Assembly: GCA_030374765.1 (NCBI GenBank)
Contig: JARGXX010000113.1
Location: 434,001 to 498,000, forward strand
Length of the DNA: 64,000 bases
Source of the DNA: Agarophyton chilense
Lineage: Eukaryota > Rhodophyta > Florideophyceae > Gracilariales > Gracilariaceae
Direction of reading: 5' to 3'
Both the position numbers and the translations under genes were made by a program. Positions 3,410 through 44,752 of this stretch are shown in pieces; position 1 is the first letter of the stretch; every line of letters starts with the position of its first letter. The notes beneath the pieces were generated by a model. It saw nothing but the letters and a program-made list of their open reading frames with translations, was not told where the DNA came from and did not search any database.

Positions 3410-3412
3410 AAT

Positions 3413-11255: not shown

Positions 11256-13049
11256 TCATTCCTCCGCACGAGGTGGACCCCCGCCCAGGCGGTTGGCTAA
11301 GGCATCCCGCATGGCGGCCACATCACCCGAGATCTCGGAAGGGCGAAGCCCCACCTCCCGAAGGAAGCGCGCGATGACCTCGTCCCGCCCCGCGCCAGCG
11401 ACGGTTGCGGGCGGGCCCGCCACCGATGGAGTCAGATAGGAATCCGTTCGCACGGCATCAGCAGCCCCGGATGGAGCCGCACCACCGTATTCAACGGACT
11501 CCTCACCGGCCTCGCCGGACCCGTCATCCTCCATCGGAGCGTAACCCGGATCCTCCGGTTCGTTGTCGACCATCGGGTCACCATCCGCATAGTCGCGGTA
11601 ATAGTCGCTCGAGTCGACATACCCTCGCGGGTGGTCGGCCGGGACTTCACGCGGCGCATGCCGGCTGGCTTCCGCTTCCTCGCGGCTGATCTCGTGGTAC
11701 TCCCAGGGGTCGAAGTAGACGAAATCCCCCGCTAGCGCGGTATTCCTTCCGAGTCCGGGGCCAGACCCGCGACGCGGTTGAATGCGCTGGGAGTTCTCCA
11801 GCGGGACCTCATCCCACTGGACCCCCTCCACAAAGTCGAGGAGGCCCAGCATCTCTTCTTCGTTCGCCTCGCCCCCGAGGGGGATGCGCATGTCCAAACG
11901 ACGGATCGCAGCCCGCACACGCGGTGGCACGTACCACAATCGGTATTGGTCGTACGCCTCAGCGAGGATAAAAGCCGCAGTGCGGACGGCCCATTCGCTT
12001 ACCACGACGGACCACCACCCCGACTGGGGATCGTTCAAGAACGACGACCCTACATAGGTGAATACTGGGGGCAGCTCAACGAAGCAACCCCAGCACGCCT
12101 CCAAGGAGGACCACCAGTCTGGGAGACTGACGTACCGACCACGTCGGTGAGCAGGCGCGATGCGCTCAATCTCCGTGTTCTGGTACGGTACGAAATACCC
12201 GGTCCGGGCCCGCCAACGCCGCTCATCGCGGATGAAGTTCTGAAGGAAGTTCGAGCGCGACTGCCGCGGTTGGTAGCGGAACTCTGCCCGAAGAATCGGT
12301 CGTGCCCAGCAAAGGGCTTCTTGCCGAGCGATCGGTGTGCCCCTCCAAGCGAGGGTTTCCAATCCGTTAAGACGGTCACAGTACGACATTTCCCCGCGAG
12401 TGCGGTAAAGGTGGACGTCGAATTCGACCTCTGGCGGTATCGGGAACTCGAAAGGCGCCCGATGGTGCCTGAGATAAGCGATCCGCACAAGCGCGGCTTG
12501 AGCCTCCGCAGAGGATTCACCGCGTCGGCGGAGTATGTGTTGTACCGGGATGGCGATACGATTACGCCAATCCCAGGACAGGGTCACCACGCCGGGCAGG
12601 TCGCCCGGGAGCATCTCCGAATTATCGGTGTAGGATTGGATCAAATCCTCGTCGCGGACAGCCAATGGGTGAAACCAAGGCGCATACCGCAACCTCGCGG
12701 AGCCATGCCGAGTTCTCGGATTTGCACCCACAAGGGCGTCGTAGGTCGGCCACTGCGGTGGGTCCGCCTGTCCGCGAAAGCGGGCGCCAATACGGCGGTC
12801 TTCGTACGCGAGGTTGACGGCCGGAGTTCGGTTGGTAACATTCCACGGATGGGGCGCGGACCGGAAGCCGGTGGAACCGCCAAGGGCGGGAGTCGCGGAG
12901 GTGTTTTGACGGTCGGGGTTGGACATGGTGCGTGTTGGTGTGCCGTGGTTGGAATCGGATGCGGAGGGCGTGCGTGGGATCCTTGGTGAAAGTGTGTTGG
13001 TTTCCGGAAACCCGGTGTCGGACGCGCTCTTATCATGACGAGCTGCCAT
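11256..13049 (-). CDS. Antisense accessory gene of element 1 (unknown W-rich protein)
   Basis: The frame is intact on the strand opposite to gag-pol, convergent with pol and ending 333 nt after the chromodomain stop. The frame is open from 13163, inside the 3' LTR. I choose Met at 13049, 48 nt from the LTR, because families 2 and 3 start at the same distance; this gives 597 residues. A Ser/Thr/Pro-rich N-terminal 120 residues precedes a conserved core with APWFHP, LPGDLP, FDVHLYRTRGE, RAEFRY, GYFVPYQN, DWWSSLEAC, ELPP and SEWAVR, then a GDFVYFDPWE box. An acidic tail ends with GDVAAMRDAL. The core has no predicted signal peptide or obvious membrane helix. I recognise no family. Homologues occur in both other elements. 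Confidence 0.85.
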   Translation of the reverse strand: MAARHDKSASDTGFPETNTLSPRIPRTPSASDSNHGTPTRTMSNPDRQNTSATPALGGSTGFRSAPHPWNVTNRTPAVNLAYEDRRIGARFRGQADPPQWPTYDALVGANPRTRHGSARLRYAPWFHPLAVRDEDLIQSYTDNSEMLPGDLPGVVTLSWDWRNRIAIPVQHILRRRGESSAEAQAALVRIAYLRHHRAPFEFPIPPEVEFDVHLYRTRGEMSYCDRLNGLETLAWRGTPIARQEALCWARPILRAEFRYQPRQSRSNFLQNFIRDERRWRARTGYFVPYQNTEIERIAPAHRRGRYVSLPDWWSSLEACWGCFVELPPVFTYVGSSFLNDPQSGWWSVVVSEWAVRTAAFILAEAYDQYRLWYVPPRVRAAIRRLDMRIPLGGEANEEEMLGLLDFVEGVQWDEVPLENSQRIQPRRGSGPGLGRNTALAGDFVYFDPWEYHEISREEAEASRHAPREVPADHPRGYVDSSDYYRDYADGDPMVDNEPEDPGYAPMEDDGSGEAGEESVEYGGAAPSGAADAVRTDSYLTPSVAGPPATVAGAGRDEVIARFLREVGLRPSEISGDVAAMRDALANRLGGGPPRAEE

Positions 13050-13083
13050 GCCGACTTCCTCTTCGAGGTGTTCGCCCTGTCTT

Positions 13084-13096
13084 AAGGGGGGGGATA
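13084..13096 (+). other. Polypurine tract of element 1
   Basis: AAGGGGGGGGATA lies immediately before the 3' LTR and would prime plus-strand DNA synthesis. Confidence 0.85.
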
Positions 13097-21762: not shown

Positions 21763-22683
21763 TGAAGTGCAACCCTCGTGAGGGCCGTTTTCCAGGACTT
21801 GGTTGTTTTCCGCCTCGGGCGATAGTTGTGAGATCTATGAGTAATACCGCTACTAGCGGGCTGGCGTATCCAGGTGTATGCGCGTTGTACGCGAAGTGCA
21901 CCGGCGGCCGTCCGCCGTGGCCCCGATTCGGGTGTGACTTACCCACGTGTACCACGGGTGGCCCAGGACAGGTTGGCACAGCATAGCTGGATATTTCTCT
22001 ATTTATTTAGATTTATTACACTTGGTTAGGGAGCTCTCTACAGTAGTCTACACTATATAGTGCCAGGGCGATCTCGCCCTGACACTCAGTAAACCTCCCC
22101 AACCAAAGTTCTTGGCTCTAAGTCTTTTTCCGCTTTCGCGAGTCTTCCACACTCTACGGAGGTGAAGCCGCGTTACTAACGGTAGACTTATCCATCCTGC
22201 GTCAACAGGAGACTCACCGCTTCTAGCGTGTATATTGTTCATACCACTGCCGTGTTCTCGCCCCAGTATTGCGTTTGCTAAATATTTCTTTTGGCTCTCG
22301 TGGCCCATGCCCCCGATCGCCCCCACTGGGTGGTCCCCCCTTTATCGCTTACCCACTCTCGTGGTAGCTCCCCCTTTTGCTTTGTGGTTGGTTGTTCGTG
22401 CCGCTCCCGCGTTCGTCGCGCGCCGGCTTACCGTATTTACCGCCACTCCCGTGGGTGCATTACTCGATCTCGAGACTTGCCCACTCCCGTGGAATACAGC
22501 TCATACCTGGTCTGCTCCCTTCTAGCATCCCGCACTCTCCCCGCTTGGCGTGCCGGTGAACCTCGGCCTTACACCCCGACTTAGTCGTGTTCACTCCGGA
22601 GAGGCTCCGTCGCCGTGCTACCCTCCTTGAAGAAAGACTCGGACATCTTCGTGTGTTTCCGCCGCCCTTGGCGTTGCACTACA
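21763..22683 (+). repeat. 5' LTR of element 2
   Basis: The 921-bp LTR has TG...CA ends (TGAAGTGCAACC to CACTACA). It carries three CCACTCYCGTGG mini-hairpins at 22353-22364, 22443-22454 and 22481-22492. TATTTATTTAG near 22000 is a possible promoter or polyadenylation element. Confidence 0.97.
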
Positions 22684-22686
22684 AAC

Positions 22687-22705: not shown

Positions 22706-22842
22706 GCTAGGGGGACCTGGTTTGGTTGTTTTCACATTGCTGTGCTGACTTCTCTCGTCGAGATCTGCTTTCCAATTTCTTGGTTTGGACCCACTTGGTG
22801 GAAGCTTTTGTTGTCCTATTCTTAGTGGTCAACGCTACAACT

Positions 22843-24973
22843 ATGTCACGACAACCGTCGGAAGCGGAACCCGCGATCACGCGGAGTCGTTCCGTCAATG
22901 ACGTGGTGCCTGCGGACCCTGGAAGGGTTCCCCCGCCGTTACCTCAAGCCCCTCCGAAAGGCAAGGGTAAGGGGTCGAACTCCTCCAAGAACACCAAGCT
23001 ACCGCCTGAGGCGTCGAAGAATGGACCCAATTCTGGTGCTGGACCGGCCCCTGCCATGGATGACCCGGCTCCCGCCGACGAAAAGGCCGGGAAAAACGAG
23101 TTCCACATCGACATAAACTCAAGTGTGAGGCAGCAGATCCGCGTAATGCGGGAAGCGCACAATGCCTTCGTGGAAGAGTTCGAAGCCCTGCGTTCCAGGT
23201 GTGATGGCTCTTCTATGAAGGAAGTAGTTGACGACCTCCGCGTGTTGCGGGCGGACGTCAACACCCTGTTGGAATGTTTTGGTGGTCCCGCCGCTTACGT
23301 GGAAGGTGTCGAGACCCGATTCAATCGTGTTAGCGCCCGTCTCCAGACGTTAGAGCAAACCATCTTGATGGAAGACGTCCCGGAGAAGCCGGTTGCTGTG
23401 TCGCACCAAGCGAAACACGATAGAAAAAGGGACGATACCCGCCGTCGGCGTGGAAAGCGTGACAGCGATGACTCGGACTCGTCGAACTTCTCACGGTCGT
23501 CGCGTGGCTCTCACCATTCAAATGGGTCGGACTCGTCAGATTCGTCTTCTGACGATGGCCATCGCAGGCGTTCATCCCGTTCTAAACGGTCGTCTGCCAC
23601 CCAAGGTGTGATCCGCGCCCGCGAGAAGGGAAGGAAACACTCCGGGTTGAAGGAGCTGAAATGCACCAACCCCCTGTACAAGAAGTTGGTTTCTTACCGA
23701 TACTATCGGCTAGAGAACTCCTCTTTGGATCGCACGCCCCGTGGCACGGGTAGAGTGAAGGATTGCATAAATCGTATGCAACTGTCCCTCAGGAACCAGA
23801 ACTTTTCTGGAGAAGACCCCATTTTGGTGCTGGATTTCCTTGCGAGGTTCGTCGCCGAAGCGGATATTCTCGGTATGACCGAAGGACAGGCGTTTATTGC
23901 ACTCCCGTACTTTATGAAAGGCCTCGCCGAGGATCAATACAACTCTGTAAGAGGTTCGTCTAGAGCCTCCGAAGGAGGGGTAACCTGCTGGCCAGAAGCA
24001 GTACAATACCTCTTGAGGTCCTACGCCACTAATCACGCGATTCAGTCGGCTATTCTCGCTCTTCGCGATACGCGCCAGAAGTCTGGAGAAACGGAAACCG
24101 AATTCTCGGTGCGCCTGAACAAGGCTTTCCACCGTAGTGGGAACGTACACTCCGCCGGAGAGCGCTGCACCATGTTCATCGATGGACTGGACCCCGCTAT
24201 CCGAACACTCGTGGCCCGTTACCGGGAAGACCGAAGGAAGACAACGTATCTGGAGTTGGTCCAACACGCGCAAGCGGAAGGTGACGCTTTAAGAGCTCGT
24301 GCCCCTGGACACAGGTCGCGAACCGCCAAGGCGTTGGTGATGGAAACGAAGTCGCCATCCCTATCGCTGATTGCGAGTGAGCGCCCCCAACAGGAGTACG
24401 ACAACGTACACTTCGCCCGAAGCGATATCCATTCGGTCCCGACAACCGAACTACCGTCTACGACGGACGACTCATATGACACGGCCCAGGATGGACCCCT
24501 GCTGTACGCAGACTCCCCCCGTGTTCACGGACCTCGCATCCCGTATGCAAACGGTGCGCTCCGACAGAGTCGCCCTGGATGGAAGGATACCCGCCAAGCG
24601 GTGAAGTTCACGGATGCTCGCTCCGGTTTGCAGCCCTCGCGCCCCGGGACTCATATGCCACATATGCTACGAACACGGTCACATTTCACCGGACTGTATC
24701 CTCACCATGAGAGAAGTAGCCCGAGTGATCGGTAATTATGAGGCGTTGACCCCAGTGGAAAAGCGGATTGTCCCGATGACGTCGTATCATCGAGCAAAGA
24801 TCGATTTTCCACGGAGTATTCCGGAGGCGAAATCGCGCAATGCGTTGCTTTACCCTGCCGAGCAGGCTCCCGACCACCGTCCCGTTCTTTCAAACCCCGC
24901 CGCTGGCGCCCCATTGCTAGTGGTTCAGGATTCTGAGGCCCCGCCCCAGGCGGATGGGACTCAGGAAAACTGA
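22843..24973 (+). pseudogene. gag: Gag of element 2, single frameshift before the zinc knuckle
   Basis: The frame is open upstream to 22726, but the Met at 22843 (MSRQPSEAEP) aligns with the family 1 start. The acidic Ser-rich region and the capsid-like core with RGSSRASEGGVTCWPEAVQ follow. A one-base insertion in a C run near 24645 moves the rest, including the knuckle CHICYEHGHISPDC, into the next frame, where it stays open to the TGA at 24971. Without the shift Gag would have about 710 residues, as in element 1. Confidence 0.9.
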
Positions 24974-25028
24974 TTTCGGGAGTCTCCCCTTCGGGAGAGG
25001 CGTCCCCAACAGTGAGGTTGACGACGCC
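24964..25028 (+). promoter_or_regulatory. Candidate -1 frameshift signal, element 2
   Basis: G GAA AAC is followed directly by the TGA gag stop. After 12 nt comes stem TCTCCC/GGGAGA (24983-24998, loop CTTC) and abutting stem GGCGTC/GACGCC (24999-25028). Spacing and lengths equal those of element 1. The -1 frame is open into pol. Confidence 0.68.
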
Positions 25029-25944
25029 CGAGGCGTCTCCGCCTCGCTCCCCGGTCACAATCCTCACGAGGAAACAGGCCGTCTCAGACGTGGACTCTGA
25101 ACACTTTGGTGTTCTACGTCGACCGTGGAAACGTGTTCTTAACCGCCGGTTCCCGGATAGAGTCTTAGTAATGGCCAAGCGCAATTACAAGGTGTATGCC
25201 GACCTTGGCCTTTCTACCCAGTTTATGGTTCGAGTCCTTACTGTTTTGGACACAGGTGCTGGTCCGAATTTCATGGTGGAGTCGCTGATGCCCCCGCCAT
25301 TGTGGTTTCAGATCCGCCTTGGCGGGGCGCCCGACGTCGCGGACGCGAATAACAACCCGTTGTCAACGGTTGGAACCGTCGCTCTCGTCGTTCGCTTAGG
25401 CTCCTTCGTGGTGAAACTCGACTTTATTGTATGCCGGAAATTGGCTGCCCCCATCATCTTGGGATGTGACTTCTGTGACAGATTCGTTGACGCCATAAGG
25501 CCCCGCTTAAAGCGTGTTGAGATCGAAGACGGCTCGTCGGTCCCGATTGTCCGTCGTCCGCTGCGGCGTGCCTCCAAGAAGCACGTGCCGCTCCCTGCCG
25601 CGCAGGAACCTCCACCCGCTTCTCGGGAGTCTACCAAGCTCCGCGTGGCTGCGTCTGTCCGAATCCCGCCAGAGTCCCAAGTATGGGTGCGTGTCACTTC
25701 CCGTCAACACGGTTTACGAGTCATTCAGCCTCTCTCATCTCTGTACGATGGATATCAACTCGCCGTGGCGAATGGAGTCGCGCAGATTGTCCCAGACAAG
25801 CCGTTCACCGTGCTCGTTGCCAATCTGGGCTCCACCCCCCAGTCACTGGTGAAAAACCAAGTTATTCGATCGGTAATGCCTCACCCCACCGCGATGGTCC
25901 CCACTAGGCTGACCGCTGCCGAAGTTTTCGGTCTCGTTCACTCT

Positions 25945-29133: not shown

Positions 29134-30913
29134 CTCATAACTCTCGTCGAGAGACGGAAACCGCTTCGTCACGTCATGACAACCGTGGTGCACGGACTCC
29201 TGGACACACCAGCAAGAACAACGGTGATCCGGACGTCCCGTCTACTGACGTGCCATCTCCGCATTTGCGCGCTACAGCCGTTGCTGAACCCTCTATGGGA
29301 AGCGCCATCGCATCTGCGTCTGATCGCACTCCCCACGGGGACTATACTCGACAGGACGCACCACGTAGTGGAAACCCTCTCGCCGAAGCGAAACCGAAAT
29401 CGCCGCAGGATGCTGTTCGCCCTCGTGATACTGGACCGGCTATGCCGTCGAGCGTTGACCCGCAGCCCGTGGGTCACGGTTCGTCGACAACAGCTACGGT
29501 GGAAAACTTAGAGCACGCCCTCGCAGGCCCCTCTAGGCCGAATCGATCGGAAGTGGTCCCTCGTACTGTACGGCAGGACACACCGGCTAAGCCGGGCAAG
29601 CACACCGTAGCAGACGGGAGATTCACACCCAGCACGCTTGATGCTGGTTCAGAACCCGCGCGCAGTGGCGGACGCACTCCGAGTGTCTCGTTTGACCCCG
29701 ACAGCGTTGTCGAAGGCGCACCGGTCACCCCGGAGAATGTGCCCGTCAAGGACGGAAGCACCTCGTCGCCGAGTGAGCATCTCGTCGCCGAGTGGAGTTG
29801 AACCCTCGAAAGGGATAGTTGAGGACGAACTCGCGCCCCGCAGGGGTTCCTCGCCGCGCACTTCGCCGCCCGTTGGTGAGGAAGGCACGGTTGACCCGGA
29901 GTTGCACGCCCGACGCGGTACTGTGTCGCTTAAGCGAGCAGACATACCGGCAGCGCCGTTGCACACGCCCTCATGTGAGGAGGCGGAACGCAGCACTGCA
30001 CGGAGTACTCCCAGCCATCAGCCGGACGTGTCACGTGACCAGACGACACCCGGCTTGGCAGATACGCCAATCAACGCCCGAGGCGGCTCACCCGGCAAGG
30101 CACGACGCCCCGTGATGAAACCGCCTCCCGCGTCAAGTCCAGCACCGTCGCGACGGATTTCACCCCGACGACTCGCGGAACGCGACCGCAAAACCCAGCC
30201 TTGGGATGAGTCCGCGTTCCCCCGAAGGGTAGCCTCTGCACGAGAACTCTCGGAAAGCATTTCGACCCAAAAACTGGGAAAATTGCCCCACGGGAAGGCC
30301 TCCGGCCGAAGCCGTCGAACTGACGCTCTTCGTCATGACGCCTTGGCGGAAGCAACCCGCCAAGCGGCCAAGGCAACCCGGAACCCGGTTCGTTCTCCTA
30401 CCCAGGGCATGGAAAGGCAACGCCAACCCATGGACCCCTCGGGGGAAGGGCACAGTAGCCCACACGCACCCGCGGACGTACACCGGTTTGGTCCGGTGAC
30501 GCGTACACCGCAAGGGCGGGAAGTCTACGAGAAGGAGTTCGTGGTCGATCACATAGTGAGGCACTCATACCATCCGGATGGTTATATTCAATACCTCGTC
30601 CGTTGGTACGGTTTAGGGCCCGAGTGGGATTCGGATGAGCCGATGGAACATCTCCCACGTTCGAAGGTGGTGTCATATCACCGCAGAACGCGGACGGGAA
30701 TCCCGGCATCGGTTGTTAAAGCCCAGGTGGGATAACACCCACCTCGGTGGAAGAGAAAGGAGAAGTAGGTTTGCTTGAGAACAGGTTAGTGAAGGAAGGT
30801 TTTGGGTTACACAAGTCACTTGGTTTTTATTCGAAGCTATCGATGGAATACCGAGCACTCGGGATACTACTCTAAGTCACAAGGGAAACTCCCCATCGGG
30901 ATCGCGTGCCCCG

Positions 30914-32852
30914 TCACGGGTTCGGCTCACCACCCCCGGGTTGGTTACCTCCCTGGAGGCGGGTGATCAAGGCCTCGCGCATCGCGGCAACATCGCCACT
31001 CGCTGCGTTGGTCCCCAGCCCCACCTGTTGCAGGAACTGGGAGATCACGGCCGCTTGACCTGCCGGAGCGGAGCTCGCATCGCCTGGGGCGGACGCCCCA
31101 CCACTTGGGAGATTCACTGGTGGAACCGGAGGTGGTCCAGCTACCGCGTACTCCGACCCAGCCCCCGCGGGGTTATCCAAACCCGCGTAAGGCGTGGCTG
31201 GCGTCCCCGCGTTAGAGGGACCTTCCGCTTCGGATCCCTCGACCTCCGCCTCGGCGTACGCTTCCCCGTCGTCGGGTTCGTTGTCCATCATTGGATCGTC
31301 GCCGTCGTAGACGTGGCAATATTCATCCGCGTCCAAGAAACCGATGGGATGCCCCTCGGGGATATGGCGTGGAGGCAAACCGGAGTTCGTTCGCTTCCTC
31401 CGCGGAGATTTCGTGCCCTTCCCAGGGGTCAAAGTATACGAAATCACCTCCCAAGGGAGTACGCCTTCCTGGTGACAGGTCCTGACCCCGGCTACCCGCG
31501 GTGCGCCCGCTTTGTTCAATCGGAACGGCGGTCCAGTCCAACTGGTCGATGTAATCGAGAAGACCTGCCACTTCCACGGCGTTGGTTACTCCACCAAGTG
31601 GGATGCTCAGGTCCAGGCTGCGAATCGCGGACCTCAACCGGAATGGGAGGAACCACAGTCTGTACTGGTCATACACCTCCCAGAGGAGGAACACCGCCGC
31701 GCGGACTGCCCATTCGGTAATCACCACGGACCACAGTCCGGACTCGGGATCCTCGATGAGGTACGAACCGTAACACGTGATGACGGGTGGCAGCTCGATG
31801 TAACAGCCCCGGCAGGCCTCGAGGTTCGACCACCACGGTGGAATGAGGACATAGCGACCCCGTCGGTCGGCCACGCGAAGGCGTTCGATCTCCACGTTCT
31901 GATACGGGACCAAATACCCGAATCGGGATCGTGCTAGACGCTCGAAGCGGATCAGGGCGAGGAAGTTGGCCCGCGCAAGTCGACGAATGTAGCGGAATTC
32001 TGCCCGGATAATCGGTCGCGTCCAGCACATGGCCCCTTGCCGTGCTATCGGGATGCCCCTCCACGAGAGTGTTTCCAAACCCGCCAGGCGGTCGACGTAA
32101 CCAATCTCACCTTGAGTGCGGTAAAGCCGAATGTCGGTGCCGAGACCATCGCTGATGGGATATTCGAAAGGAGCCCGGCGAAGCCGTTGATGGCCAAGAA
32201 GGACGAATGCCGCATGAGCGGAAGCCGAGGTTTCCCTACCCCGGCGCGCCACAGCGTGGACCGGAACCGCTACGCGGCGTCGCCAATCCAACGAAGTTAT
32301 CGCCACGGCCGGAATATCGCCCGGAAGCATCCCGTTTCCATCGGTGTACATCGCTATGAGCGCTTCTTTTAACACCGCAATCGGGTGGAACCACGGCGCA
32401 AGCCGGAGAACGGACGCATGATGCCCAGGATGGCGCCGGACAAGCATGTCGTATGGCGGCCACCCTCTCGGGGGGAACATTCCGTACGGAGCAGCAGCCG
32501 CGTTCGCGATAGGAACCTGCGGCGCAGCCGATGACGCGCTTTGCGGAAGCGGAACGGACCGGAAGTCGGAGGAGTACCCCGCAGGGAGACGGTTGGGTTG
32601 ATTGTTTTGGTTGCTCATCGGTGAGCGAAGAGGCCGGATGACAGGAAGAGGAGACCGGCGAAGCGGGAGACGATGCCGAGGAATCGGAGGACTGGCACGC
32701 AAGGATGCGGATTCGGTTGAGATGGAACGTTGAGAACGGTTGTTGCCAGAAGACTGGAGTTTTGCCGCACTGCGTTTGTTGGCATCGGATGAAGTGGATC
32801 CCAGCGAGCTGGTTGCACTCTTATGCATTCGTCTCGGCGCGGCGCCCACCAT
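30914..32852 (-). pseudogene. Antisense accessory gene of element 2, one frameshift
   Basis: Read on the minus strand from the Met at 32852, 36 nt inside the 3' LTR, the first frame runs to 31323. A shift near 31375 moves the tail into the frame ending at 30914. Together they cover the same architecture as element 1: a Ser/Pro-rich N-terminus, then APWFHP, LPGDIP, LYRTQGE, RAEFRY, GYLVPYQN, PPWWSNLEAC, ELPP, TEWAVR, GDFVYFDPWEG and the acidic tail ending near GDVAAMREAL. The similarity continues across the shift, so the lesion is recent. The product is unknown. Confidence 0.85.
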
Positions 32853-32875
32853 CGCGGATGTCGTACTCGGGCTTC

Positions 32876-32887: not shown

Positions 32888-33808
32888 TGAAGTGCAACCC
32901 TCGTGAGGGCCGTTTTCCAGGACTTGGTTGTTTTCCGCCTCGGGCGATAGTTGTGAGATCTATGAGTAATACCGCTACTAGTGGGCTGGCGTAGCCAGGT
33001 GTATGCGCGTTGTACGCGAAGTGCACCGGCGGCCGTCCGCCGTGGCCTTAATTCGGGTGTGACTTACCCACGTGTACCACGGGTGGCCCAGGACAGGTTG
33101 GCACAGCATAGCTGGATATTTCTCTATTTATTTAGCTTTATTACACTAGGTTAGGGAGCTCTCTACAGTAGTCTACACTATATAGTGCCAGGGCGATCTC
33201 GCCCTGACACTCAGTAAACCTCCCCAACCAAAGTTCTTGGCTCTAAGTCTTTTTCCGCTTTCGCGAGTCATCCACACCCTACGGAGGTGAAGCCGCGTTA
33301 CTAACGGTAGACTTATCCACCCTGCGTCAACAGGAGACTCACCGCTTCTAGCGTGTATATTGTTCATACCACTGCCGTGTTCTCGCCCCAGTATTGGGTT
33401 TGCTAAATATTTCTTTTGGCTCTCGTGGCCCATGCCCCCGATCGCCCCCACTGGGTGGTCCCCCCTTTATCGCTTACCCACTCTCGTGGTAGCTCCCCCT
33501 TTTGCTTTGTGGTTGGTTGTTCGTGCCGCTCCCGCATTCGTCACGCGCCGGCTTACCGTATTTACCGCCACTCCCGTGGGTGCATTACTCGATCTCGAGA
33601 CTTGCCCATTCCCGTGGAATACAGCTCATACATGGTCTGCTCCCTTCTAGCATCCCGCACTCTCCCCGCTTGGCGTGCCGGTGAACCTCGGCCTTACACC
33701 CCGACTTAGTCGTGTTCACTCCGGAGAGGCTCCGTCGCCGTGCTACCCTCCTTGGAGAAAGACTCGGATATCTTCGTGTGTTTCCGCCGCCCTTGGCGTT
33801 GCACTACA
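32888..33808 (+). repeat. 3' LTR of element 2
   Basis: The 921-bp LTR is nearly identical to 21763-22683. ATGCT follows. Confidence 0.97.
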
Positions 33809-33949
33809 ATGCTCTCCGGCAATTATCATTTGGTATTCCAGGAGATATTTCAGATAATCTGTTCGAAATGTCTGATTTGAGTGCTGCATTATGTCTGGAG
33901 GCTTTTTGTCAGACGTTATCGCTTGTTTTCGGGGAAATTTATCTCCTTG
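33809..33949 (+). pseudogene. PIF/Harbinger transposase, 3' piece
   Basis: The frame of the left piece resumes at the duplicated ATGCT and gives LRQLSFGIPGDISDNLFEMS and then LCLEAFCQTLSLVFGEIYL. This fits the HARBI1 pattern A-L-R-x-L-x-Y-G, then D-x-x-x-E-x-L-x-M, then F-C-x-x-V-x-x-V-F-G-x-x-Y-L. The gene is cut again at 33949 by the 5' LTR of element 3. The catalytic part of the transposase is not found on the other side of element 3. Confidence 0.75.
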
Positions 33950-34872
33950 TGTAGAGCAACGCCCAGTTAGGGGATACTTGAAGATGCAACTCATAGAATG
34001 AGGGTTGAACCCTCTGAGGGTTATGACTATGATCCCCTCTAAGGTGTGCTGAGGTGGCACTGTTTTCTGGTTAGAGTTCGCCTATGACGTGAAGATTCGG
34101 ATGGCCCATGGTTGGATTGGCCCCGTGATACACGTGGCTTAATTTTGGCACCGATTTTCGGATATTTTTTAGAACGTTGGACTTTTGGGCCCTGACAGTG
34201 GGATCTCTACGTGTATGGCCCTGAGCAGGTGTGCACTGCTGTAACTAGTAGAGTTTAGTTAGTGGGCCCTACTTAGAGAGACGAGATCTGACAGTCCAAA
34301 GCTCAGAGTAAATGGTAACCAAGGTTGGTCTTCCATACCTTTAGAGGTTCTTCGTCGCCATCGTTTCGGCCTTACAACCCGGAACGAGCTCTGGTTAGAA
34401 ACGCCTGCGTAGGGACACGACTCCACTTGGAGAGTGCCCACGTTTGGGTTCCGTGCAACCACCCCCTTGGGACCGTTCAGACAACCTGCGTGCACGATAC
34501 CCCGTGGGGGTTCTGCTTACTTGTTGCGTGCTTTTTGTGTTTCCTTTCGAGGACAGGTTCTCTTTCCTGTATTGGGTTTCTTTTGTTGTTTCGCCCCTTT
34601 TCTGGTTCTCGGGTCCGGTGCCTGTTAGTGCCCGACCCTCGCCCCGTTTTTCCTCTTCGCCGGATTTTCCGCAATTCTTTGGGATACCCATACCCATTCC
34701 CGACCCAACGGTTTCTACCCCTCACCTCCGTCGGTACTGCCGGAATCCCCCGTGGGAGTTACACCCCACACTACGGGTGGAACGGAGGGCTCTGTCTCTG
34801 AGTCTGCCTCCCCCAGGGAGCAAGGCTTCGAACACCTTGAGAGCACTTCCCGTCGCCGGGTTTTGCTCCACA
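33950..34872 (+). repeat. 5' LTR of element 3
   Basis: The 923-bp LTR runs from TGTAGAGCAACGCCC to GCTCCACA and pairs with 44795-45717. Confidence 0.96.
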
Positions 34873-34874
34873 AG

Positions 34875-35099: not shown

Positions 35100-37130
35100 A
35101 TGTCGCCGCCTACCCGTGGTTCTAGGACTGGATCGAACCGTCAAGCGAATTCAGTGCCCCCGGCCCCGCCTAGGTCGAGGAGCTCAATTCCCGAAGATCG
35201 GAACGATTCCGGTATCGATCCGGACACTCGGAGAGCACCCTCAGTGGTTTCAGGTCCTCGAGAGGTTGTGGCTGTGGGCCCAGCTCCAGTGGTGGAGACC
35301 CCCTCAGCAGCACCCCGAAGTCGGGCCGACCCTGAATTACAGCGCCTGGAGACTCGAATCTATATCGCCAACGCGGCTCACGTCGAGCTCCTTCAGGAGG
35401 TTACTACCCTCAGCTGCAAGGTGGAGGACGCCCAGGAGCGGGGAGTCGCCGATGACTTTCGTACCCTTAGGAGGGATGTGGACTCCCTTTTGGAAAGCTT
35501 TGGTACCCCTCGGGTCTTTGTCCAGGAGTACCGGAGCCTCGTGGAGGAACACCGCGTGCAAGCGGAACGCTTCCGAGCTCGGCTGGACACCCTCGAGGCC
35601 ATTATCGGTATGGACGGAGGCACAGAAGCCTCGAAGGATAAACCCGACGTTTCGGAAGACGAAGAACACCGCTCCGCTAAACGGGACCGCCGCAAGTCCA
35701 AGAAGAGGGTTCACCTCCAAGAGGATTTATCGGATTCCGATCCCAATCGCTCGTCATCGAGTTAGTCCTCCGAATCTTCGGATAGTGAAGATGGACGCCG
35801 GTCATCCCGGGCGACTCGGTCGAAGGCTACTTACACCTCTCAAGGGGCAATCCGTACCCGGAAGAAGGGTAGGAAACACCTTGGATTAAGGGAGCTGAAG
35901 CCGACGAATCCTCTCTATCGGAAGCTGCTATCGTATCACTATTACCGGTTGGATAACCCTTCGGGAGATCAAACATCCCGCGGAACGGGTAAGGTCAAGG
36001 ACTACATCAAAAGGCTGAGCATCACCCTACAGAAGAGGGAGTTCACAGGAACAGACCCAATTCTGGTGCTCGATTTCCTTGCGAGGTTCGTCCAGGAGGC
36101 TGACATCCTCGGTATGAGTGAAGCGCAAGCGTATCTTGCATTACCCTATTTCTTAAAGGGGATGGCTGAAGACCAGTTCAACTCCGTCCGTGGATCATCC
36201 CGAGCCTCGGAAGGGGGAGTCACGTGCTGGCCCGAAGCGGTGCAGTACCTCTTGAGGTCATACGCTACTGGAAATGCGATTCAGGAAGCAATCCTTGCAT
36301 TAAGGGATGCGCGGCAGAAGCCGATGGAAACCGAAACGGTGTATTCAAATCGCTTGAATAAAGCGTTTCACCGATGCGGGAATGTATTCCCCGCCTACGA
36401 GAGATGCTCCATGTTTGTGGATGGTTTGGACCCCTCGATAAGGGAATTGGTTGCCCGACATCGGGAAGAGAAGCGCAAGCTGACCTACTTGGAACTGGTT
36501 CAGTACGCCCAGGCTGAGGGGGATACTCTCCGTGCCCGGCAGAACCGAAAGAGTCGGCCGACACGTGCACTCCTCGCCGATGGAAATAACTCGTCTTTGT
36601 CACTCGCAGGAGACCCTGCCCCTGTGGGGGTCAATGATAACACTCACTTCATGGGAAGTAACCCCGAATATATGGGTACGTCTGAGTTGCCGTCTACATC
36701 CGCTCCGACTACGGATGAAGACCCTGCGCTCTATACCCAAGGACGGAGGGTGCCAGCCGCATCGCTACCTTTTGCGAATACCGCTGCTCGGTTCTCTCGC
36801 CCAGGATGGAGGGATACAGCACCACGTCGCGTGGATTCACGTCCACAACCGAACCCGGCAGAGCTGATTTGCTATTTGTGTTACCTCCGTGGTCACAAAG
36901 CACCAGACTGCAAATTTCCCCTGCGGGAGGGTTCACGAATTATCGCTCAGTACGAGGCTCTGACCCCTGAGGAGAAAGCTCGAGTCCCGAGTAGGTCCTA
37001 TGGGAAACAAAGGATACTCCGAGCTCACCTTGCTGACAGCGATACAGAACTTGTACCCGCGAACGGGGAACAACCGGTCCCCTTCGAGGCAGCTGCACCG
37101 AATTCGGTGGGGTCCGCTTCGAAAAACTAA
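35100..37130 (+). pseudogene. gag: Gag of element 3, one in-frame TAG
   Basis: The start is the ATG at 35100 (MSPPTRGSRTG). A TAG at 35763-35765 interrupts the Ser-rich acidic region; the same frame then continues to 37130, so a single Ser codon change (for example TCG to TAG) explains it. The conserved core has RGSSRASEGGVTCWPEAVQ and the knuckle is CYLCYLRGHKAPDC. The full frame would be 676 codons. Confidence 0.9.
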
Positions 37131-37185
37131 ACTTGGGAGTCTCCCCTGCGGGAGGGGCGTCTTCTAAGCCGGAGTTGAAGACGCC
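37121..37185 (+). promoter_or_regulatory. Candidate -1 frameshift signal, element 3
   Basis: G AAA AAC is followed directly by the TAA gag stop. After 12 nt comes stem TCTCCC/GGGAGG (37140-37155, one wobble pair, loop CTGC), then an abutting stem GGCGTCTTC/GAAGACGCC (37156-37185) that is 3 bp longer than in elements 1 and 2. The -1 frame opens into pol. Confidence 0.68.
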
Positions 37186-40100
37186 CGAGGCGCTCCAGCT
37201 TCGCTCCCCAGCTGTGACTATCCTTTCAAGGAGAACGGCTGACACCGACGTTAACTCGGGATACTTTAGTGTCCTCCGTCGCCCGTGGATACGGTCCCGT
37301 AATCTCCGTATTCCGGATCGAGTTATGGTAATGGCCAAGCGGAATTATAAAGTATTCGCCGACTTCGGCCTGTCCAACCAGTTTATGGTTCGTCAAATAT
37401 CTGTCCTGGATACAGGAGCCGCTTCTAACTTAATTAATGTTGAATTGTTACCCCCGCTGCTCCAGGTTCGAGTTCGTACCGGTCCACGTTTAGATATCGC
37501 CGATGCGAACAACAACCCACTACGGACACTGGGTACAATTTCCCTCATGGTGAGGTTAGGCTCCTATCTCGTTCAGCTAGAGTTTATTGTATGCAAATCA
37601 CTTGCAGCACCAGTCATACTGGGTTGTGACTTTTGCGACCGCTTCGTGGAAGCCATCCGTCCTCGGAATAGAACTGTGGAACTCAAAGACGGGTCTACGA
37701 TCCCAATCGTTCGTAAACCCTTACAGGGAGCAGCGCGAACACGCGTTCCTCTCCTTGTCGCGCAGTAATCTGTGAAGAAGGACCCGGTGTCTACACGGGT
37801 AAAGGTTGCGAAGTCAGTGGCTATCCCGCCAGAAACCCAGGTTTGGGTCACAGTAGTTACCAAGCAATTTGGTGTGCATGTGGTACAACCGAACCCGTCT
37901 CTTTATACGCGGCGTCAACTCGCCCTTGCGAATGGGGTTGTCTCCGTGGAACCGGAAAAACCTTTCAAGGTTTTGGTAGCCAACTTTGGGAAGACAACGC
38001 AGCATTTGGTCAAACACCAGATCCTGGGTTCTGTTCTTCCACACCCGCATGCGGTAGTACCTACAAAGATCTCCATTGCAGAGGTCCTTGGTGTGGCGGA
38101 CCCTAAGGAGGTGGAGGACACTGCCAAAATCGCGGAAGAAGGTGAGCATACGACTGCAGCTCCACACCCTGAACACTTTAAACCTCAGAAGGTTACGGCC
38201 CCTATCTCAGGAGCAGACCAGACGGATCCTGTTCAGGAATTGGAGAAATGGGATCTCAACCATGTACCCGCATCTCATCGGGAGAAGCTGAGGCACATGC
38301 TTCGTGAATATACCCCCATGTGGGATGGTTCCCTTGGAACTATTGGGATTACAGAACACCGCATCGACTTGTTACCGAACACTCGGCCTATTGCCCAACA
38401 TCCTTACAGGGCTGGACCGAAAGCTCGGGAAGAGGAGAAATCTCAGGTGGAGAAGATGCTTAAAGCGGGCGTAATTGAACCTGCCCAGTCCGCTTGGGCC
38501 TCACCAGTGGTGTTAGTTCCGAAACCGGATGGATCGTGGCGTTTCTGCATCGATTACAGACGCCTGAACGAGGTAACCATTAAGGATGTGTACCCGATCC
38601 CTCGGATGGACGAATACATCGACTCCCTTTGGAGCGCTACTGTTTTCTCTACCCTCGACGCCAATTCGGGCTACTGGCAAGTCCCTATTAGGGAGGAAGA
38701 TCGAGACAAAACGGCTTTCGTGTGTCATCAAGGACTTTTCCGATTCCGGAGGATGCCTTTTGGGTTGACAAATGCCCCCGCAACGTTTCAACGGGCGATA
38801 GACATTCTGTTGGCTCCCTTCAAGTGGAGGACGTATCTACTGTATTTAGACGACATTATTGTCTTCTCCAACAACCTGGATGACCACCTCGAACACGTCA
38901 GGGACGTAATGAAGATACTCCGCGACGCGGGAATCACCTTGAAACTCAAGAAGTGCGAGTTTTTCACCGATTCGGTTAAGTATCTGGGTCATGTCATCCG
39001 TCCCGGACAGCTTTCAATCGATGAAGTACGAGTGAAATCCTTGAAGGAAGCAAAACACCCGAAAAATCAAACGGAGTTGCGATCCTTCTTAGGTCTGTGT
39101 AACGTGTATCGCCGATTCGTCCCGAACTTTGCGGATATTGCCACCGCCCTCAACAGGCTCCTGACGAAGGGACAACCAGTTGAACTGGAAACTTTTGGCG
39201 ACGCGGAAGCGTCTGCCTTCACGGCACTGGTGAATGCCGTAACATCACCGCCAATCTTGGCTCTACCCAATCCTGGGCTCCCTTACGAAGTGGACACCGA
39301 TGCTAGTGCAAACCAAGTAGGGTGTGCACTGTTCCAATCCTCTGAGGATGGTGAACGTCACCCTATTGGGTACTGGTCACGTTCCCTGAATGTCCATGAA
39401 AGGAACTACTCGGTCTCCGAGAAAGAATGTTTAGCCGTTGTGTGGGCCTTAGCTACACTTCGCCCCTATCTGATGGGTACTCGTTTCAAAGTCCATACGG
39501 ACCACGCATGCTTGCGTTGGCTCCTGGAGATCTCCGAACCCTCGGGCCGCCTTATGCGCTGGCGTCTCCGACTGTCGGAATTCGACTTTGAGATCCTGTA
39601 CAAGAAAGGGAAGCTGAACACTCAGGCTGACGCACTATCCCGCTTGGGAACCACAGCGGAAACGGAACCCTACGAGGACGATGACATCCCATGTTTTATG
39701 GTATCGGACCTCGAGGGAGGAGCTCAACCGCTGACGGATGATGTTTGTGACGATATACTCGTCAACGAGAGTCTGGATTCGCCGACCGGCTCTTTTATAC
39801 CTATCTCTCCAGAGGAGATGATACGCGAGCAACAGCTCGACCCATTCTGTACACGGATTCGGGCTCGCCTCAACGGAGGATTTCAGTTACCTTTCGAGGA
39901 CGACGATCAGGGTTACCTAATCAGGACCGTTGGACCTCGCCCGAGGATAGTGGTGCCGCACACCCTACAACAGAGGGTATTACACCTCACTCACTATGTG
40001 AAGGTTGGAGCCCACCCCGGGGGAAGAAAACTGTACCTCACGTTGAGAAGGGACTTTTACTGGCCGGCAATGGCATTCGATTGTTACGCCGTCAGGCGTG

Positions 40101-42455
40101 CCTGCGCCAATTGCGCCAAGAATGACGTCAAACTTCGGAAGCACTCTAAGAAGTTGACGCTGTTCCCGGCACGGGCTACACTCGAATTCGTGGCCATAGA
40201 CATCCTAGGGGAATTTATCAGGACGCCCCGAGGTCATCGGTATCTGCTTGTCATTTCTGACAGATTCTCTAAGCTACCGAGAACTGTGCCGCTGAAGCGG
40301 ATCACCGCTGCTACCGTCGCGCAAGCGTTCGTGACCCATTGGGTGTTCGTATATGGACCGCCGGTGCAGTTGTTATCCGACAACGGAGGGCAATTCGCAT
40401 CAAAGTTCTTTCAGGATGTATGTCGAATCCTTGATGTAAGGAGTTTATTTGTTACTACGTATCACCCTCAGGGGAATGGCCAGGTGGAGAGGTTTAACCG
40501 CACGATACTCAACGCTTTGAGATCGTATGTTGCGGATCACCCCAAAAAATGGGACTTGTACACAGACGCTATCACGTATGCATACAACACCCAGGTACAT
40601 CGGGTTACATCGTTATCCCCATTCGAGCTGGTACTGTCGAGGAAACCGCCGCCGGTCGCCATCGAGGCTCAACCGACGCTGTCGACGTACCCGTCACCGG
40701 GATTGTACCGAGAATCCTGGAAGGAGTGGCTTACGAAGATGGTGCTGATAGCCCGGAAAGCAATGGACAAAGCTCAACGCGCCTACAAGAAGGACTTTGA
40801 CAATCGGGTTCGCAAACCTCTACCTCAGGTGGAGCCCGACGACTTCGTCTTCCTTCGAAAGGAATACTACAATCCTGAAAAGGAACGTAGGCACAAGCTT
40901 TCGCCAATTGTAGACGAACCCTATCGTGTGGTTTCTGTAGACCCGGACACGGTGGTATTGGATATCGCTAACCGCCACGAACGGATCCCCAGGGACCGCA
41001 TCACACGAGCGCCCAACCCAAATGTGGAAGTGGTGTCGGCACCAACGCCCTCCACAGGGGATGATTCAACGGAAGTTAACCCGTCAAGCGGAGATTGGAA
41101 CACCCGCCCCGTCATACTTCCGCACCCGGAACGTGGTTTAACCGACCTACCGGAAACTTCGGATACTCCCGAACCTGGGCCCGCTCCCTCAAGGGCCCAG
41201 TCAACGAACTCTTACAGAGTTACTCCCCCACCGGAGGTAATCAAGCCTCCTGGCTCTCCGCCTAAGGAGGGGGAGGAGGACTTAGATCCTTTGCAGGACG
41301 ATGTTTCGGCGTCAGCCAGTCGCCCTAACAGGGAATCTAGTTCTCACAGTGAGAGGGCGAGCCCGACCGAGCCGGCGACAGAGAAGTCACAACCCCAGCG
41401 TATGGGTAGCGACATCACCGCCGACCCAGCCGAGCACGACGTCAGAAAAGATGACGAAACCCCGCCTAAGGAGAGTCGTGTGGAGAACTCCGCACCCGGA
41501 ACGCCTACAGAGCCGACGATCACCCGCCGCCGCAGACGAGACACTGAGGTGTCGCACACTCAAACCCCGCTTTCTCGGGAACGAGCTGTGTCAGCGGACC
41601 CGCACGGGGAAGATCTCGACGAAGAGGTTGACCAAATTTGGCTCTCCGTTATGGAATGGGAATAGGAACTCCTATGGAGACACTGGAACCCTCAGGAATG
41701 GGAAAGAAATGAGTGAGAGCCGTCGGGGACAGCTCAGAAGAGTGCTAGCGCGTGTCGAAAGCGCCACCTCACATCCGCTTACGGAGTGGCAACCGGCGCC
41801 CGCGCATTTATGTGGCACACGTCGAATGGCACCGAGCCAATCAAAAGGCTCTGACGACCAACCGTCGCCCAAACCGCCTCCGTCGCACGGCGCGTTGCAC
41901 GAGAGCAACCTTCGTCCCCGTAGCTCGGGTTGACGTTGAATTCCTACCCCCCTGAGATTGGAGACGCTACCGCGTCGCGGTTTCTCAACCCTCACGGAAT
42001 CTAAGAACACCGTTGTTATCGGGAAGATCTTAGCTTTAAGAAGAACCCAAAACTCGGCCGTTTTGACTCCGTAGACGGAAGTTACAACGTAGCCCACAGG
42101 CTACTCGGCGCCGTTTGGACGAAGTGCTGAGACCCGCTCGCAACACGGAAAAGAACCCACCGGGGTGTGTCTAGACCCTACGTTGACACCCTCAAGGGAA
42201 CTAGAGCGTTCCAAGATGGAAGAGAAGCCCGAACAGGGAAAAGTGTACCCGCAGGAATTCGTTATCGATCGCATCGTGCTTCACATCTACACCATCAAGG
42301 GAGAAGTTCGCTACCAAGTCCGATGGTACGGATTCTCGCCTGATGAGGATACAGTGGAACCCATTGAGCACCTTCCGAGGTCTAAGGTTTTATCCTATCA
42401 CCGACGCGCTCGGGTAACCTTGCCTCCAAGTCTGGATCGTGCCCAATTCGGGTAA
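37127..42455 (+). pseudogene. pol: Pol of element 3: PR-RT-RNase H-IN-chromodomain, stop plus shift
   Basis: The protease DTGAA is at 37409. A TAA at 37766-37768 replaces what is Glu in families 1 and 2 (GAA to TAA), and the same frame continues to 41665. RT has FCIDYRRLN, FSTLDANSGYWQ and an intact YLDD (38843-38854). RNase H has DTDASANQVG and TDHACLRWL. Integrase has the HHCC region (about 39980-40120) and the signatures IDILG, LSDNG and GQVERFNR. The disordered linker then passes into another frame (about 41600-41933) with a further stop, before the chromodomain (42165-42455) with YQVRWYGFSPDEDTVEP. Confidence 0.92.
41264..41280 (+). other. Internal polypurine-like tract, element 3
   Basis: AAGGAGGGGGAGGAGGA in the pol linker matches the 3' tract of the same element (AAGGAGGGGGAGA) and sits at the place equivalent to those in elements 1 and 2. 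A weaker copy (AAGGAGGTGGAGGA) is at 38105-38118. Confidence 0.4.
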
Positions 42456-42626: not shown

Positions 42627-42795
42627 TGATGAAAAAGGAAAAGAAGACCCACGAAGTGGAGAAGAAGATTAAGAAGAAGATTGGACCCTAGGAAGGGAAG
42701 AAGATGAAGACGAAGATGAAGAAGATCCTAAGAAGGAATGAAGAAGATGAAGTAGAAGTTAAGATCCTAGGAAGGAAGAAGAAAAGAAGTTATGC
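42627..42795 (+). repeat. Purine-rich (GAAGAA) low-complexity tract with 40-bp periodicity
   Basis: About 170 bp of almost pure A/G contains three copies of a GAYCCTARGAAGGR motif starting near 42684, 42724 and 42763. It lies between the convergent chromodomain stop and the antisense gene stop of element 3 only. Confidence 0.6.
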
Positions 42796-42856
42796 AAATA
42801 TCAGAAGTTTACTATTGTCGCCAAGCTATGGACTCTACAATTGCCCGAAGGCGGAA

Positions 42857-44752
42857 CTACGGAAAGCCCGAGGAGGGACCCGCCCCACCGTTGGGATTCT
42901 GACCCTGATGGTACGCCGAGGCGAAAGCCAACATCTGGCTCACATCCGTCATACCCGGGGGAATCGGAATGACCGCGTTCACGAGGCCTTGTCGCATACT
43001 ATCCGCTTGCGGAGTGGCAACCGGCGCCTGCGCAAGGGTGTTCACACCCCACCCGGGAGGAGCAGATGGACCGCCACCGGATGCATTTGCCGCCGCAGCT
43101 GAGGTCGTTCCCACTGGTTGGAAGGGTGCAGATGGCTCCACAGGGAGTACTCCACTAGGAGCTGGCATGTCGTTATCCAACGCTGGATCGTCCAGGTTTA
43201 CTGGAGGCTCGTACTCGTAATCGTCGGTATAAATGAACCCTGTCGGGTGTCCCACCGGCATCGGTCGAGGCGAGTCCATCAGCGCCCGTGCTTGCGCCGC
43301 GCTGATGCGAATCCCTTCGAAAGGATTGTAATAGACCCAGTTACCGGAGCCCGGATCGTACCGGCCAGGAGACTTGTCTCGCGCGGATCCTTCCCCTGCG
43401 GGCTGATTTTCCACTGGAGCTCGATCCCATTGGGTGTTATCGATCACGTCCAAGATTGGATACAGGTCCTGCACGTTGCTGACCGAACCCAACGCTGGGA
43501 CAAGGTCGATCTGACGCATGATGGTCCGTAGCATCGGAGGAATATACCAGATACGGAAATGGACATGAGCATCCCAGAGGAAGTGCGCCGCTACGCGGGC
43601 TGCCCACTCGGCTGCAACGAGGGCCCAGTATCCCGAGTTCGGGTCGTGCATCAAACGAGACCTGATATAGTAGATGCACGGTGGCAGTTCAGCAAAGCAC
43701 CCTCGGGGGACCTCGACCTTACTCCACCAAGCTGGAAGGGGCACGAATCGCCCAACCTTCGCCGTGTTACGGATACGCTCCAGTTCCACGTGAGGATACG
43801 GGACAAGGAACCCGAAACGGGAGCGCGAGCGGCGCTCGAAGCGCACGCGTCGATCGAACCCATACTGGGTACACTGCCGTTGAAGGTACCTGAATTCAGC
43901 CCGAAGGATAGGACGACTCCATTGGAGCATATCTTCTCGGAGAGGAAAACCCGGTCCGCGGAACTCGGCTTCGAGAAAGGCTGCCAGGTTATCCCCGTAG
44001 GAGACCTCACCGTACGTGCGGTAATAGGCGACATCGAACCCGTATTCCGGGGGAACCAGATGATCAAAGCGTGACCTCTCCAATCGCTGGTAGGCCAGAG
44101 CCGCCATCGCTGCGCGCGCCTTGTCCAGGGACTCCCCGCGACCGCGGTATAGATACTGAGGCTCTATGGCTACCCGCGCCCTCCAATCGGGAGAACGTAC
44201 AACCTCGACAGGTAGGCCACCCGGCAATAAGCCGTCCTCCACGTAGGAGTCGATGAGCTCATCGTCGCGAACCGCTGTCGGATGGAACCACGGAGCGCGG
44301 GAATATATCACCGGATCGGTAAGGGGACACCACCTTCGAAAGGATTCGTTTGAGATCCAACCTCTGGAGTTTACTACCAAGGGCATCGCATGAGCGGAGT
44401 TCCACGCCACTGCGTTAATGTCCAAATCCTCCTGAGGATGTCGGTTGCTCGCCGAGGCGGAAGGTTCGGTACCTGACGAAGCCGCATCCAAACCGGAGAA
44501 ATATCCACCCTGCTGGGGAGTTTCGTTGTCCGCCGGCGCGGAGGCCTACGGCCCCGAGAGTGGGTTGGTGAGGTAGGGGTTCATTCCCTTGAGAGGGTTG
44601 GTTGAGACTGCTGTTGCGAGAAGTTGCTTATCGCCGAAAGTCGGAGGAGTAGAAGAAAGTTGTACCGATGTGCCGGTTTTGTGGCGATCCCCGGAAGTGG
44701 TGAAGGATCCCATTCGGAGAGCAGTATATATAGCGACTGGAACGCGAGACAC
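42857..44752 (-). pseudogene. Antisense accessory gene of element 3, one in-frame stop near the N-terminus
   Basis: From the Met at 44752, 43 nt from the 3' LTR, the frame has one TAG at 44546-44548 and is otherwise open to 42857; from the internal Met at 44491 there are 544 uninterrupted residues. The conserved order is present: APWFHP, LPGGLP, FDVAYYRTYGE, RAEFRY, GFLVPYPH, PAWWSKVEV, ELPP, AEWAAR, NWVYYNPFEG and an Asp-rich DDPALDND segment. The Ala/Gly/Pro-rich tail differs from families 1 and 2. The start distance to the LTR matches the other two elements. Function is unknown. Confidence 0.85.

What the first reader, a model, noticed from the sequence alone, without database searches (positions are those of the whole stretch)
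11256..44752. A conserved antisense gene in three divergent gypsy families
Seen: between chromodomain and 3' LTR, all three large elements carry a long frame on the opposite strand (11256-13049, 30914-32852, 42857-44752). The proteins share an ordered set of motifs (APWFHP, LPGD/GxP, YRTxGE, RAEFRY, VPYxx, WWS, ELPP, EWA, VYxxPxE) while N- and C-termini diverge. Known: some plant LTR elements (for example Grande and the Tat/Ogre group) have extra ORFs, a few antisense. Inference: this is an algal accessory protein of unknown fold kept by selection, perhaps acting in silencing evasion, RNA handling or particle function. I recognise no family.
Basis: partly seen in the sequence, partly recalled or inferred. 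Interest (0 to 1): 0.88.

Follow-up and report, generated by a model that had tools for sequence, protein, structure and literature searches.

The report
Antisense gene in seaweed retrotransposons
Several distantly related jumping genes in a red seaweed genome carry, back to front near one end, the same conserved extra protein of unknown shape, which natural selection has kept; the layout is known from flowering plants, but this protein family appears to be new.

Summary
Three chromodomain Ty3/gypsy elements (A, B, C) each carry a long bottom-strand gene (aORF) between the chromodomain and the 3' LTR. It is protein-coding: codon positions differ as 2>1>3, synonymous sites are saturated while dN is 0.40-0.76, and omega=1 is rejected in 14 of 14 between-family pairs from five families. 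No sense frame is open in all of A, B and C. Families D and E occur elsewhere in the genome, and a decayed sixth (F) lies in this window. Where flanks could be tested, the aORF faces the pol end on the other strand in 64 of 64 loci. A divergent second clade, seen by coordinates only, shows this layout in 28 of 30 testable hits (chance about 1). The 12 relatives with a named source are all Gracilariaceae. No Pfam, PDB or fold match; the core model is only fair (pLDDT 64). The protein lacks a membrane segment and a zinc knuckle and diverges faster than gag and pol. Antisense pol-3'LTR genes are known (Grande, Retand, HTLV HBZ), so the layout is a known kind; the protein family looks new. Best guess: an accessory regulator. 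Transcription and function are untested.

The parts
2583..3410 (+). element A 5' LTR (lacks about the first 38 bases present in the 3' LTR)
3524..5644 (+). element A gag with CCHC knuckle
5680..10923 (+). element A pol (RT, RNase H, integrase, long linker, chromodomain 10681-10920); one in-frame stop at 7378-7380 in this copy
11256..13049 (-). aORF of element A, intact, 597 aa
13097..13961 (+). element A 3' LTR (start inferred from the purine tract; the repeat match begins at 13135)
21763..22684 (+). element B 5' LTR
22726..24735 (+). element B gag
25012..30735 (+). element B pol in broken frames, chromodomain about 30499-30732
31323..32852 (-). aORF of element B, open part with ATG, 509 aa
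30917..31585 (-). C-terminal part of aORF B in another frame (this copy is frameshifted)
32888..33809 (+). element B 3' LTR
33950..34872 (+). element C 5' LTR
35949..37130 (+). element C gag core with CCHC
37133..42452 (+). element C pol in pieces; RT-RNaseH-integrase in 37772-41665, chromodomain match 42228-42452
42857..44752 (-). aORF of element C; one premature stop near the N-terminus in this copy, open from 44545 to the stop
44795..45717 (+). element C 3' LTR
58308..60844 (+). family F pol remnant: RT/RNase H 58308-59059, integrase 59229-60305, chromodomain 60680-60844
62734..63237 (-). family F aORF remnant (168 codons), profile match 11.2 bits, expected place and strand

Best explanation
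A lineage of red-algal chromodomain Ty3/gypsy retrotransposons carries a third gene, on the opposite strand between the chromodomain and the 3' LTR. Shown: it encodes one homologous protein of about 550-650 aa (low-confidence Ser/Pro-rich N-terminus, mostly helical conserved core, variable acidic stretch, short C-terminal helical stretch), it sits opposite the pol end, and it is conserved at protein level between families whose LTRs no longer align. Inferred: an antisense mRNA starts in or near the 3' LTR, because the start codons lie 47 and 35 bases from it in A and B, and the protein acts in trans on the element's own life cycle, most likely as a regulator of sense expression or replication, working like HBZ/APH-2 of HTLVs or Grande GENE23 without shown relation to them. 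My probability for 'translated protein kept by selection for the element' is about 0.93, and for 'regulator of its own expression' about 0.4. The confidence given is for the whole statement; a draft said 0.5, which cannot stand beside 0.4 for one of its parts, so it is 0.4.
For: Coding strand: codon-position identity .61/.68/.42 (A-B), highest protein identity in the aORF frame, each other frame with stops. Selection: 14 of 14 between-family pairs reject omega=1, 2dlnL 83.6-512.5, dN 0.40-0.76 with saturated dS. Within families pairwise dN/dS is 0.54 (A; core 0.49) and 0.66 (B), against 0.70 and 0.71 for the pol end. Layout: 64 of 64 loci opposite to the pol end, two of them the window's own A and B (the 65th, L065, has flanks too short), plus 28 of 30 testable hits in the divergent clade. 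Same branching as gag and most of pol at matched columns (A-B closest): gag .64/.58/.61, aORF core .55/.44/.43. LTRs give only matches of at most 38 bases between families. Start codons beside the 3' LTR. No transmembrane segment in 9 of 9 proteins. Relatives in Gracilariopsis chorda and Gracilaria domingensis.
Against: No RNA data: antisense transcription, start site and translation are unseen. Counting variants without frequency weights in 30 A and 30 B copies gave N/S near 1 (0.87-1.05 for aORF, 0.92-1.10 for pol ends), and the within-family pair D-D2 has omega 0.72, not distinguishable from 1. The regulator role has no domain support: no significant Pfam match, no lysine/arginine-rich nuclear signal by a simple pattern in 16 of 17 aORF proteins. 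Loci were fetched by the aORF itself, so they do not show what share of elements carries it.
Confidence: 0.4

Rival explanations
1. The aORF protein is a particle or replication cofactor (partner of Gag, integrase or the long integrase-chromodomain linker) made from an antisense message.
For: It shares the branching of gag and pol; it is large, without membrane segment, and largely helical in the model.
Against: Structural proteins are normally made from the sense RNA that is packaged (general knowledge); no CCHC knuckle; no fold match to capsids was listed (inconclusive).
Confidence: 0.2
2. The aORF protein counters host silencing or another host defence.
For: Faster divergence than gag and pol at matched columns, termini that vary while the core is kept, and high-copy families (73, 79 and 80 scored hits for A, B, C).
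Against: No silencing-suppressor motif is recognised; rapid divergence alone does not show conflict, and positive selection could not be tested because dS is saturated.
Confidence: 0.2
3. The main product is antisense RNA that tunes or silences the element, and the open frame is incidental.
For: Antisense transcripts without coding role are known in other elements (PMC7264820, passages).
Against: Protein-level conservation with saturated synonymous sites over five families, with F matching at profile level, is not expected of a noncoding RNA.
Confidence: 0.05
4. The conservation is a shadow of a sense-strand gene in the same stretch.
For: A has a sense ORF 11778-12989 of 403 aa, open in 22 of 30 A copies; the aORF frame over the same stretch is open in 24 of 30.
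Against: The same sense frame has 4-8 stops in B and C over the aligned region and lower identity (A-B .32 against .51); openness among near-identical copies carries little information.
Confidence: 0.02

Closest known systems
Antisense additional ORFs between pol and 3' LTR of plant elements (aORF-3R: maize Grande GENE23, rice RIRE2, Silene Retand)
   Same: Same position and orientation, conservation comparable to other element proteins, no clear relatives outside the elements (PMC7264820, passages).
   Different: Those are in plants; the Retand lineage is non-chromovirus and 97% of its clusters carry TRP28 (PMC11963269, passages), which no protein here matches. Sequence comparison with GENE23 itself was not made.
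HBZ of HTLV-1 and APH proteins of HTLV-2/3/4
   Same: Antisense gene expressed from the 3' LTR; a working model of a regulatory antisense protein (PMC10186651, passages).
   Different: HBZ is a 31-kDa bZIP protein with known transcripts; ours is longer, with no bZIP match and no RNA evidence.
Boty of Botrytis cinerea
   Same: Named in the review as a non-plant element with an aORF-3R (PMC7264820, passages).
   Different: Fungal; its protein was not compared here.
Env-like sense ORFs of plant LTR elements
   Same: Extra gene between pol and 3' LTR.
   Different: Those are in sense orientation and some have transmembrane domains (PMC7264820); here antisense, and no membrane segment in 9 of 9.

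Membership tests
aORF-3R class (antisense ORF, pol to 3' LTR) | lies between pol and 3' LTR | tested here: met
   A, B, C; pol side in 64 of 64 flanked loci; the LTR side was checked in A, B and C only
aORF-3R class (antisense ORF, pol to 3' LTR) | antisense to gag-pol | tested here: met
   28 of 30 testable clade-2 hits
aORF-3R class (antisense ORF, pol to 3' LTR) | present in most copies of a family | tested here: inconclusive
   at least 73, 79 and 80 hits for A, B, C in capped lists, but loci were chosen by the aORF, so copies without it were not counted
aORF-3R class (antisense ORF, pol to 3' LTR) | conservation comparable to other element proteins | tested here: met
   within families constraint at least like the pol end; between families somewhat below gag and pol
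aORF-3R class (antisense ORF, pol to 3' LTR) | antisense transcript | not testable with these tools
   no RNA data held
Retand aORF with TRP28 (PF04195) | TRP28 domain | tested here: not met
   no such family among Pfam matches of A, B, C or the 23 members of A4; that the library holds PF04195 was taken for granted
Retand aORF with TRP28 (PF04195) | carried by a non-chromovirus Ty3/gypsy element | tested here: not met
   chromodomain in A, B, C, D (Pfam scores 22.5 and 24.2 for A and B lie just under the cut-off 25.1, D 27.6 above it, C by similarity to A and B only)
HBZ-type antisense protein | bZIP domain | tested here: not met
   no bZIP among Pfam matches
HBZ-type antisense protein | transcribed from the 3' LTR | not testable with these tools
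   position only: start codons 47 and 35 bases from the LTR in A and B
Env-like protein | transmembrane segment | tested here: not met
   maximum 19-residue hydropathy 0.88-1.54 in 9 proteins
Chromovirus (host element) | RT-RNaseH-integrase order with a C-terminal chromodomain | tested here: met
   (chromodomain scores as above)
Any solved or viral fold | structural match of the core | tested here: inconclusive

The most novel reading that the evidence does not exclude
The antisense gene is an old, regular component of a whole lineage of Gracilariaceae chromoviruses, as standard as gag and pol: a three-gene, two-strand retroelement with its own protein superfamily (clade 1: A-E; clade 2: F and longer relatives with frames up to 876 codons) and possibly a new fold, arisen independently of Retand, Grande and HTLV antisense genes.
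Probability: 0.5. Interest if true: 0.75.

Novelty: new variant of a known kind. Interest (0 to 1): 0.6.

Why it matters
Antisense genes in LTR elements are known but their roles in retrotransposons are open (PMC7264820). Here one homologous protein can be compared across six or more families in one small (80 Mb) genome with at least 230 scored matches, so conserved residues, expression and function become directly testable. It also extends the layout to red-algal chromoviruses, which suggests repeated origin or an unexpectedly broad use of the opposite strand. Public records carry relatives as 'hypothetical protein' (BWQ96_03215, BWQ96_10156, FGB62_50g12).

Tried and rejected
Family and structure searches that found nothing convincing: Pfam, PDB sequences (one chance-level hit, E 0.64), PHROGs, viral contigs (7 pattern matches, none confirmed). 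The C-terminal stretch looked to me like a SAP/HeH motif (recalled); Pfam gave only Ish1 at E 0.054-0.092 in D-type proteins and unrelated weak hits in A and B, so I do not claim it. E3_binding in 7 of 23 members (best E 0.029) lies in the core where I looked (3 proteins), and I take it as chance. First AF2 model (15 sequences, whole protein) was poor, pLDDT 46; the second (23 sequences, core) is fair. Fold searches listed no convincing family.

Apparent discordance between gag/pol and aORF identities in BLAST segments vanished when the same columns were compared, except in the last pol block (linker, A-C .51 above A-B .38). Sense ORF of A considered and rejected as the source of conservation. 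Variant counts near neutrality are kept as evidence that recent copies decay; they were made with looser ends and without frequency weights. The fall of dN/dS with distance is partly expected from binning on dS itself. For family F the profile-profile test alone is weak (probability 4.5%, E 0.009), while the profile score beats 5000 shuffles. Some of the 109 hits are pieces of one locus.
Full report
WHAT IS THERE. The window lies in a eukaryotic assembly of 79.76 Mb in 135 contigs. Three LTR elements are complete enough to read: A (2583-13961), B (21763-33809) and C (33950-45717), with LTR pairs 97.0, 98.2 and 95.8% identical. Each has gag (CCHC knuckle found in A and C), and pol with RT, RNase H and integrase plus a distant chromodomain (in A and B the chromodomain scores just under Pfam's cut-off, in C it was found by similarity to A and B). 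Between the chromodomain and the 3' LTR each carries a bottom-strand frame: A 11256-13049, intact; B 31323-32852 open, with the C-terminal part in another frame; C 42857-44752 with one early stop. The start codons of A and B are 47 and 35 bases from the 3' LTR, and the stretch given for C ends 42 bases from it; a purine tract lies just before the LTR.

MORE THAN CHANCE, AND WHICH STRAND. The longest open frame in each pol-LTR interval exceeds all of 300 dinucleotide shuffles. In the A-B comparison identity at codon positions 1, 2, 3 of the aORF frame is .61/.68/.42; A-C and B-C show the same order. The aORF frame has the highest protein identity of the six frames (.51/.39/.40) and each other frame contains stops. 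A 403-aa sense ORF in A is open in 22 of 30 A copies, the aORF frame over the same stretch in 24 of 30; copies are so similar that this says little. The same sense frame has 4-8 stops in B and C.

SELECTION. With real copies of five families (A, B, C, D twice, E), maximum-likelihood pairwise codon models reject omega=1 in 14 of 14 between-family pairs (2dlnL 83.6-512.5); dN is 0.40-0.76 and dS is saturated (lowest estimate 3.65), so omega is not estimable beyond 'far below 1'. The within-family pair D-D2 gives omega 0.72, not different from 1. Within families (30 copies each, window copy included), mean dN over mean dS is 0.54 for aORF A (core 0.49) and 0.66 for aORF B, against 0.70 and 0.71 for the 3' ends of pol. 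The ratio falls with distance in all five sets, as expected if active lineages are constrained and inserted copies decay, though binning on dS makes part of that trend. An unweighted count of variants gave ratios near 1 for aORF and pol alike. In the scored lists, which favour the best matches, 50 of 73, 40 of 84 and 48 of 80 hits have no stop in the matched stretch.

HOW WIDE. Family D (L061, L062; both copies interrupted near the N-terminus) and family E (L065) were found in the same genome. In 64 of 64 loci with usable flanks the end of pol, with chromodomain, lies on the strand opposite to the aORF; L065 was too short to test. These loci were fetched through the aORF, and two are the window's own, so this shows that the aORF sits in such elements, not that all such elements have it. 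In the window a decayed sixth family F (pol 58308-60305, chromodomain 60680-60844) has a remnant at 62734-63237 on the bottom strand. It scores 11.2 bits against the A-E profile (single-comparison E 7e-6; E 0.014 among the 1913 frames of the window); none of 5000 shuffles reached it, the highest of the 2904 reported being 2.9. A profile-profile test was weaker. Searched in the genome, this remnant has 109 hits, many in long frames up to 876 codons. Of the 30 hits with an F-like integrase hit within 8 kb, 28 have it on the opposite strand and on the aORF's 3' side, 1.8-3.5 kb away; random placement gives a mean of 1.03 and at most 5 in 500 trials. All 15 hits with an RT hit within 9 kb are opposite too, only the best 27 of 150 RT rows having been used.

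WHERE ELSE. Protein searches gave 16 distinct relatives. The 12 with a named source are Gracilariopsis chorda (4), Gracilaria domingensis (1) and Agarophyton chilense (7); 4 have no name. D is up to 91% identical to A. chilense proteins, and the published G. chilensis assembly is 76.07 Mb in 138 contigs (PMC10388701, passages), so the host is probably that species or a near relative; this is inference. No relative outside the family was found, but the search needs shared five-residue words and scored only about 8000 candidates each time.

WHAT THE PROTEIN LOOKS LIKE. About 550-650 aa: N-terminus of low confidence, with a short recurrent motif GFRS[AV]P in 5 of 17 proteins, several of the others lacking that end; a conserved core; a variable acidic stretch; and a short helical C-terminus. 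The core model (23 sequences) has pLDDT 64 and pTM 0.56, mostly helices, with confident parts at model residues about 11-60, 251-330 and 351-370. No fold match, which does not show that the fold is new. No membrane segment, net charge -27 to 0 in 9 proteins, no CCHC. At matched columns identities A-B/A-C/B-C are .55/.44/.43 for the aORF core.64/.58/.61 for gag.74/.63/.63 for the protease part, and .67-.85/.63-.79/.61-.80 for six pol blocks; the seventh, linker block is .38/.51/.44. So the aORF shares the history of gag and most of pol, and changes faster.

MECHANISM. Shown: position, strand, coding, constraint. Inferred: the message starts in or close to the 3' LTR, since the frame begins there and since the same arrangement is used by HTLV-1 (PMC10186651, passages), while Grande uses a promoter upstream of gene23 (PMC7264820, passages). 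A protein encoded this way can be made without the full-length sense RNA, which suits a regulator acting before or against sense expression; that is why I put an HBZ-like role first, at about 0.4, ahead of a particle cofactor and an anti-defence role at 0.2 each.

KNOWN OR NEW. [quoted passage not shown] In the listings of ten full-text searches I saw none that describes one in red algae; the listings show titles and the starts of abstracts only, the library holds openly licensed papers only, and I read passages of five papers. The two defining features of the Retand case that could be tested (TRP28, non-chromovirus) are not met. I therefore file it as a new variant of a known kind: a new protein family in a new host lineage.

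Noticed in passing
window 45718-48513 and 56091-58886: 97% identical inverted repeats of 2.8 kb that contain pol parts of two oppositely oriented family F copies; the left one begins exactly where element C's 3' LTR ends, so C probably inserted into, or recombined with, an F copy.
   Followed up: partly
window 48640-49656 (-): ORF with 25% identity to gag of A (48685-49356), probably F gag; Pfam gives only a weak XRN_N match (E 0.03).
   Followed up: partly
G000 C68:3138181-3158347 and C77:295889-306910: aORF A copies spaced regularly (9,197 and 9,249 bases), three and two in a row on one strand: tandem elements, perhaps sharing LTRs.
   Followed up: no
window 13708-14682: Frame with a DDE_Tnp_1_7 (transposase IS4-like, piggyBac-type by recall) match that begins inside the 3' LTR of element A.
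   Followed up: no
window 7381-10923: In A about 400 residues of low-complexity linker separate integrase from the chromodomain.
   Followed up: no
window 3411, 22685 and 34873 onward: A, B and C share nearly the same sequence just after the 5' LTR (TGGTCTCC[CA]GACTTAGAA), presumably one primer-binding site.
   Followed up: no
window 18311-19960 (-) and 1236-2057 (-): Host-like genes: a GLE1-like protein (E 1.4e-45) and a NAD(P)-binding protein (E 8.8e-23).
   Followed up: no
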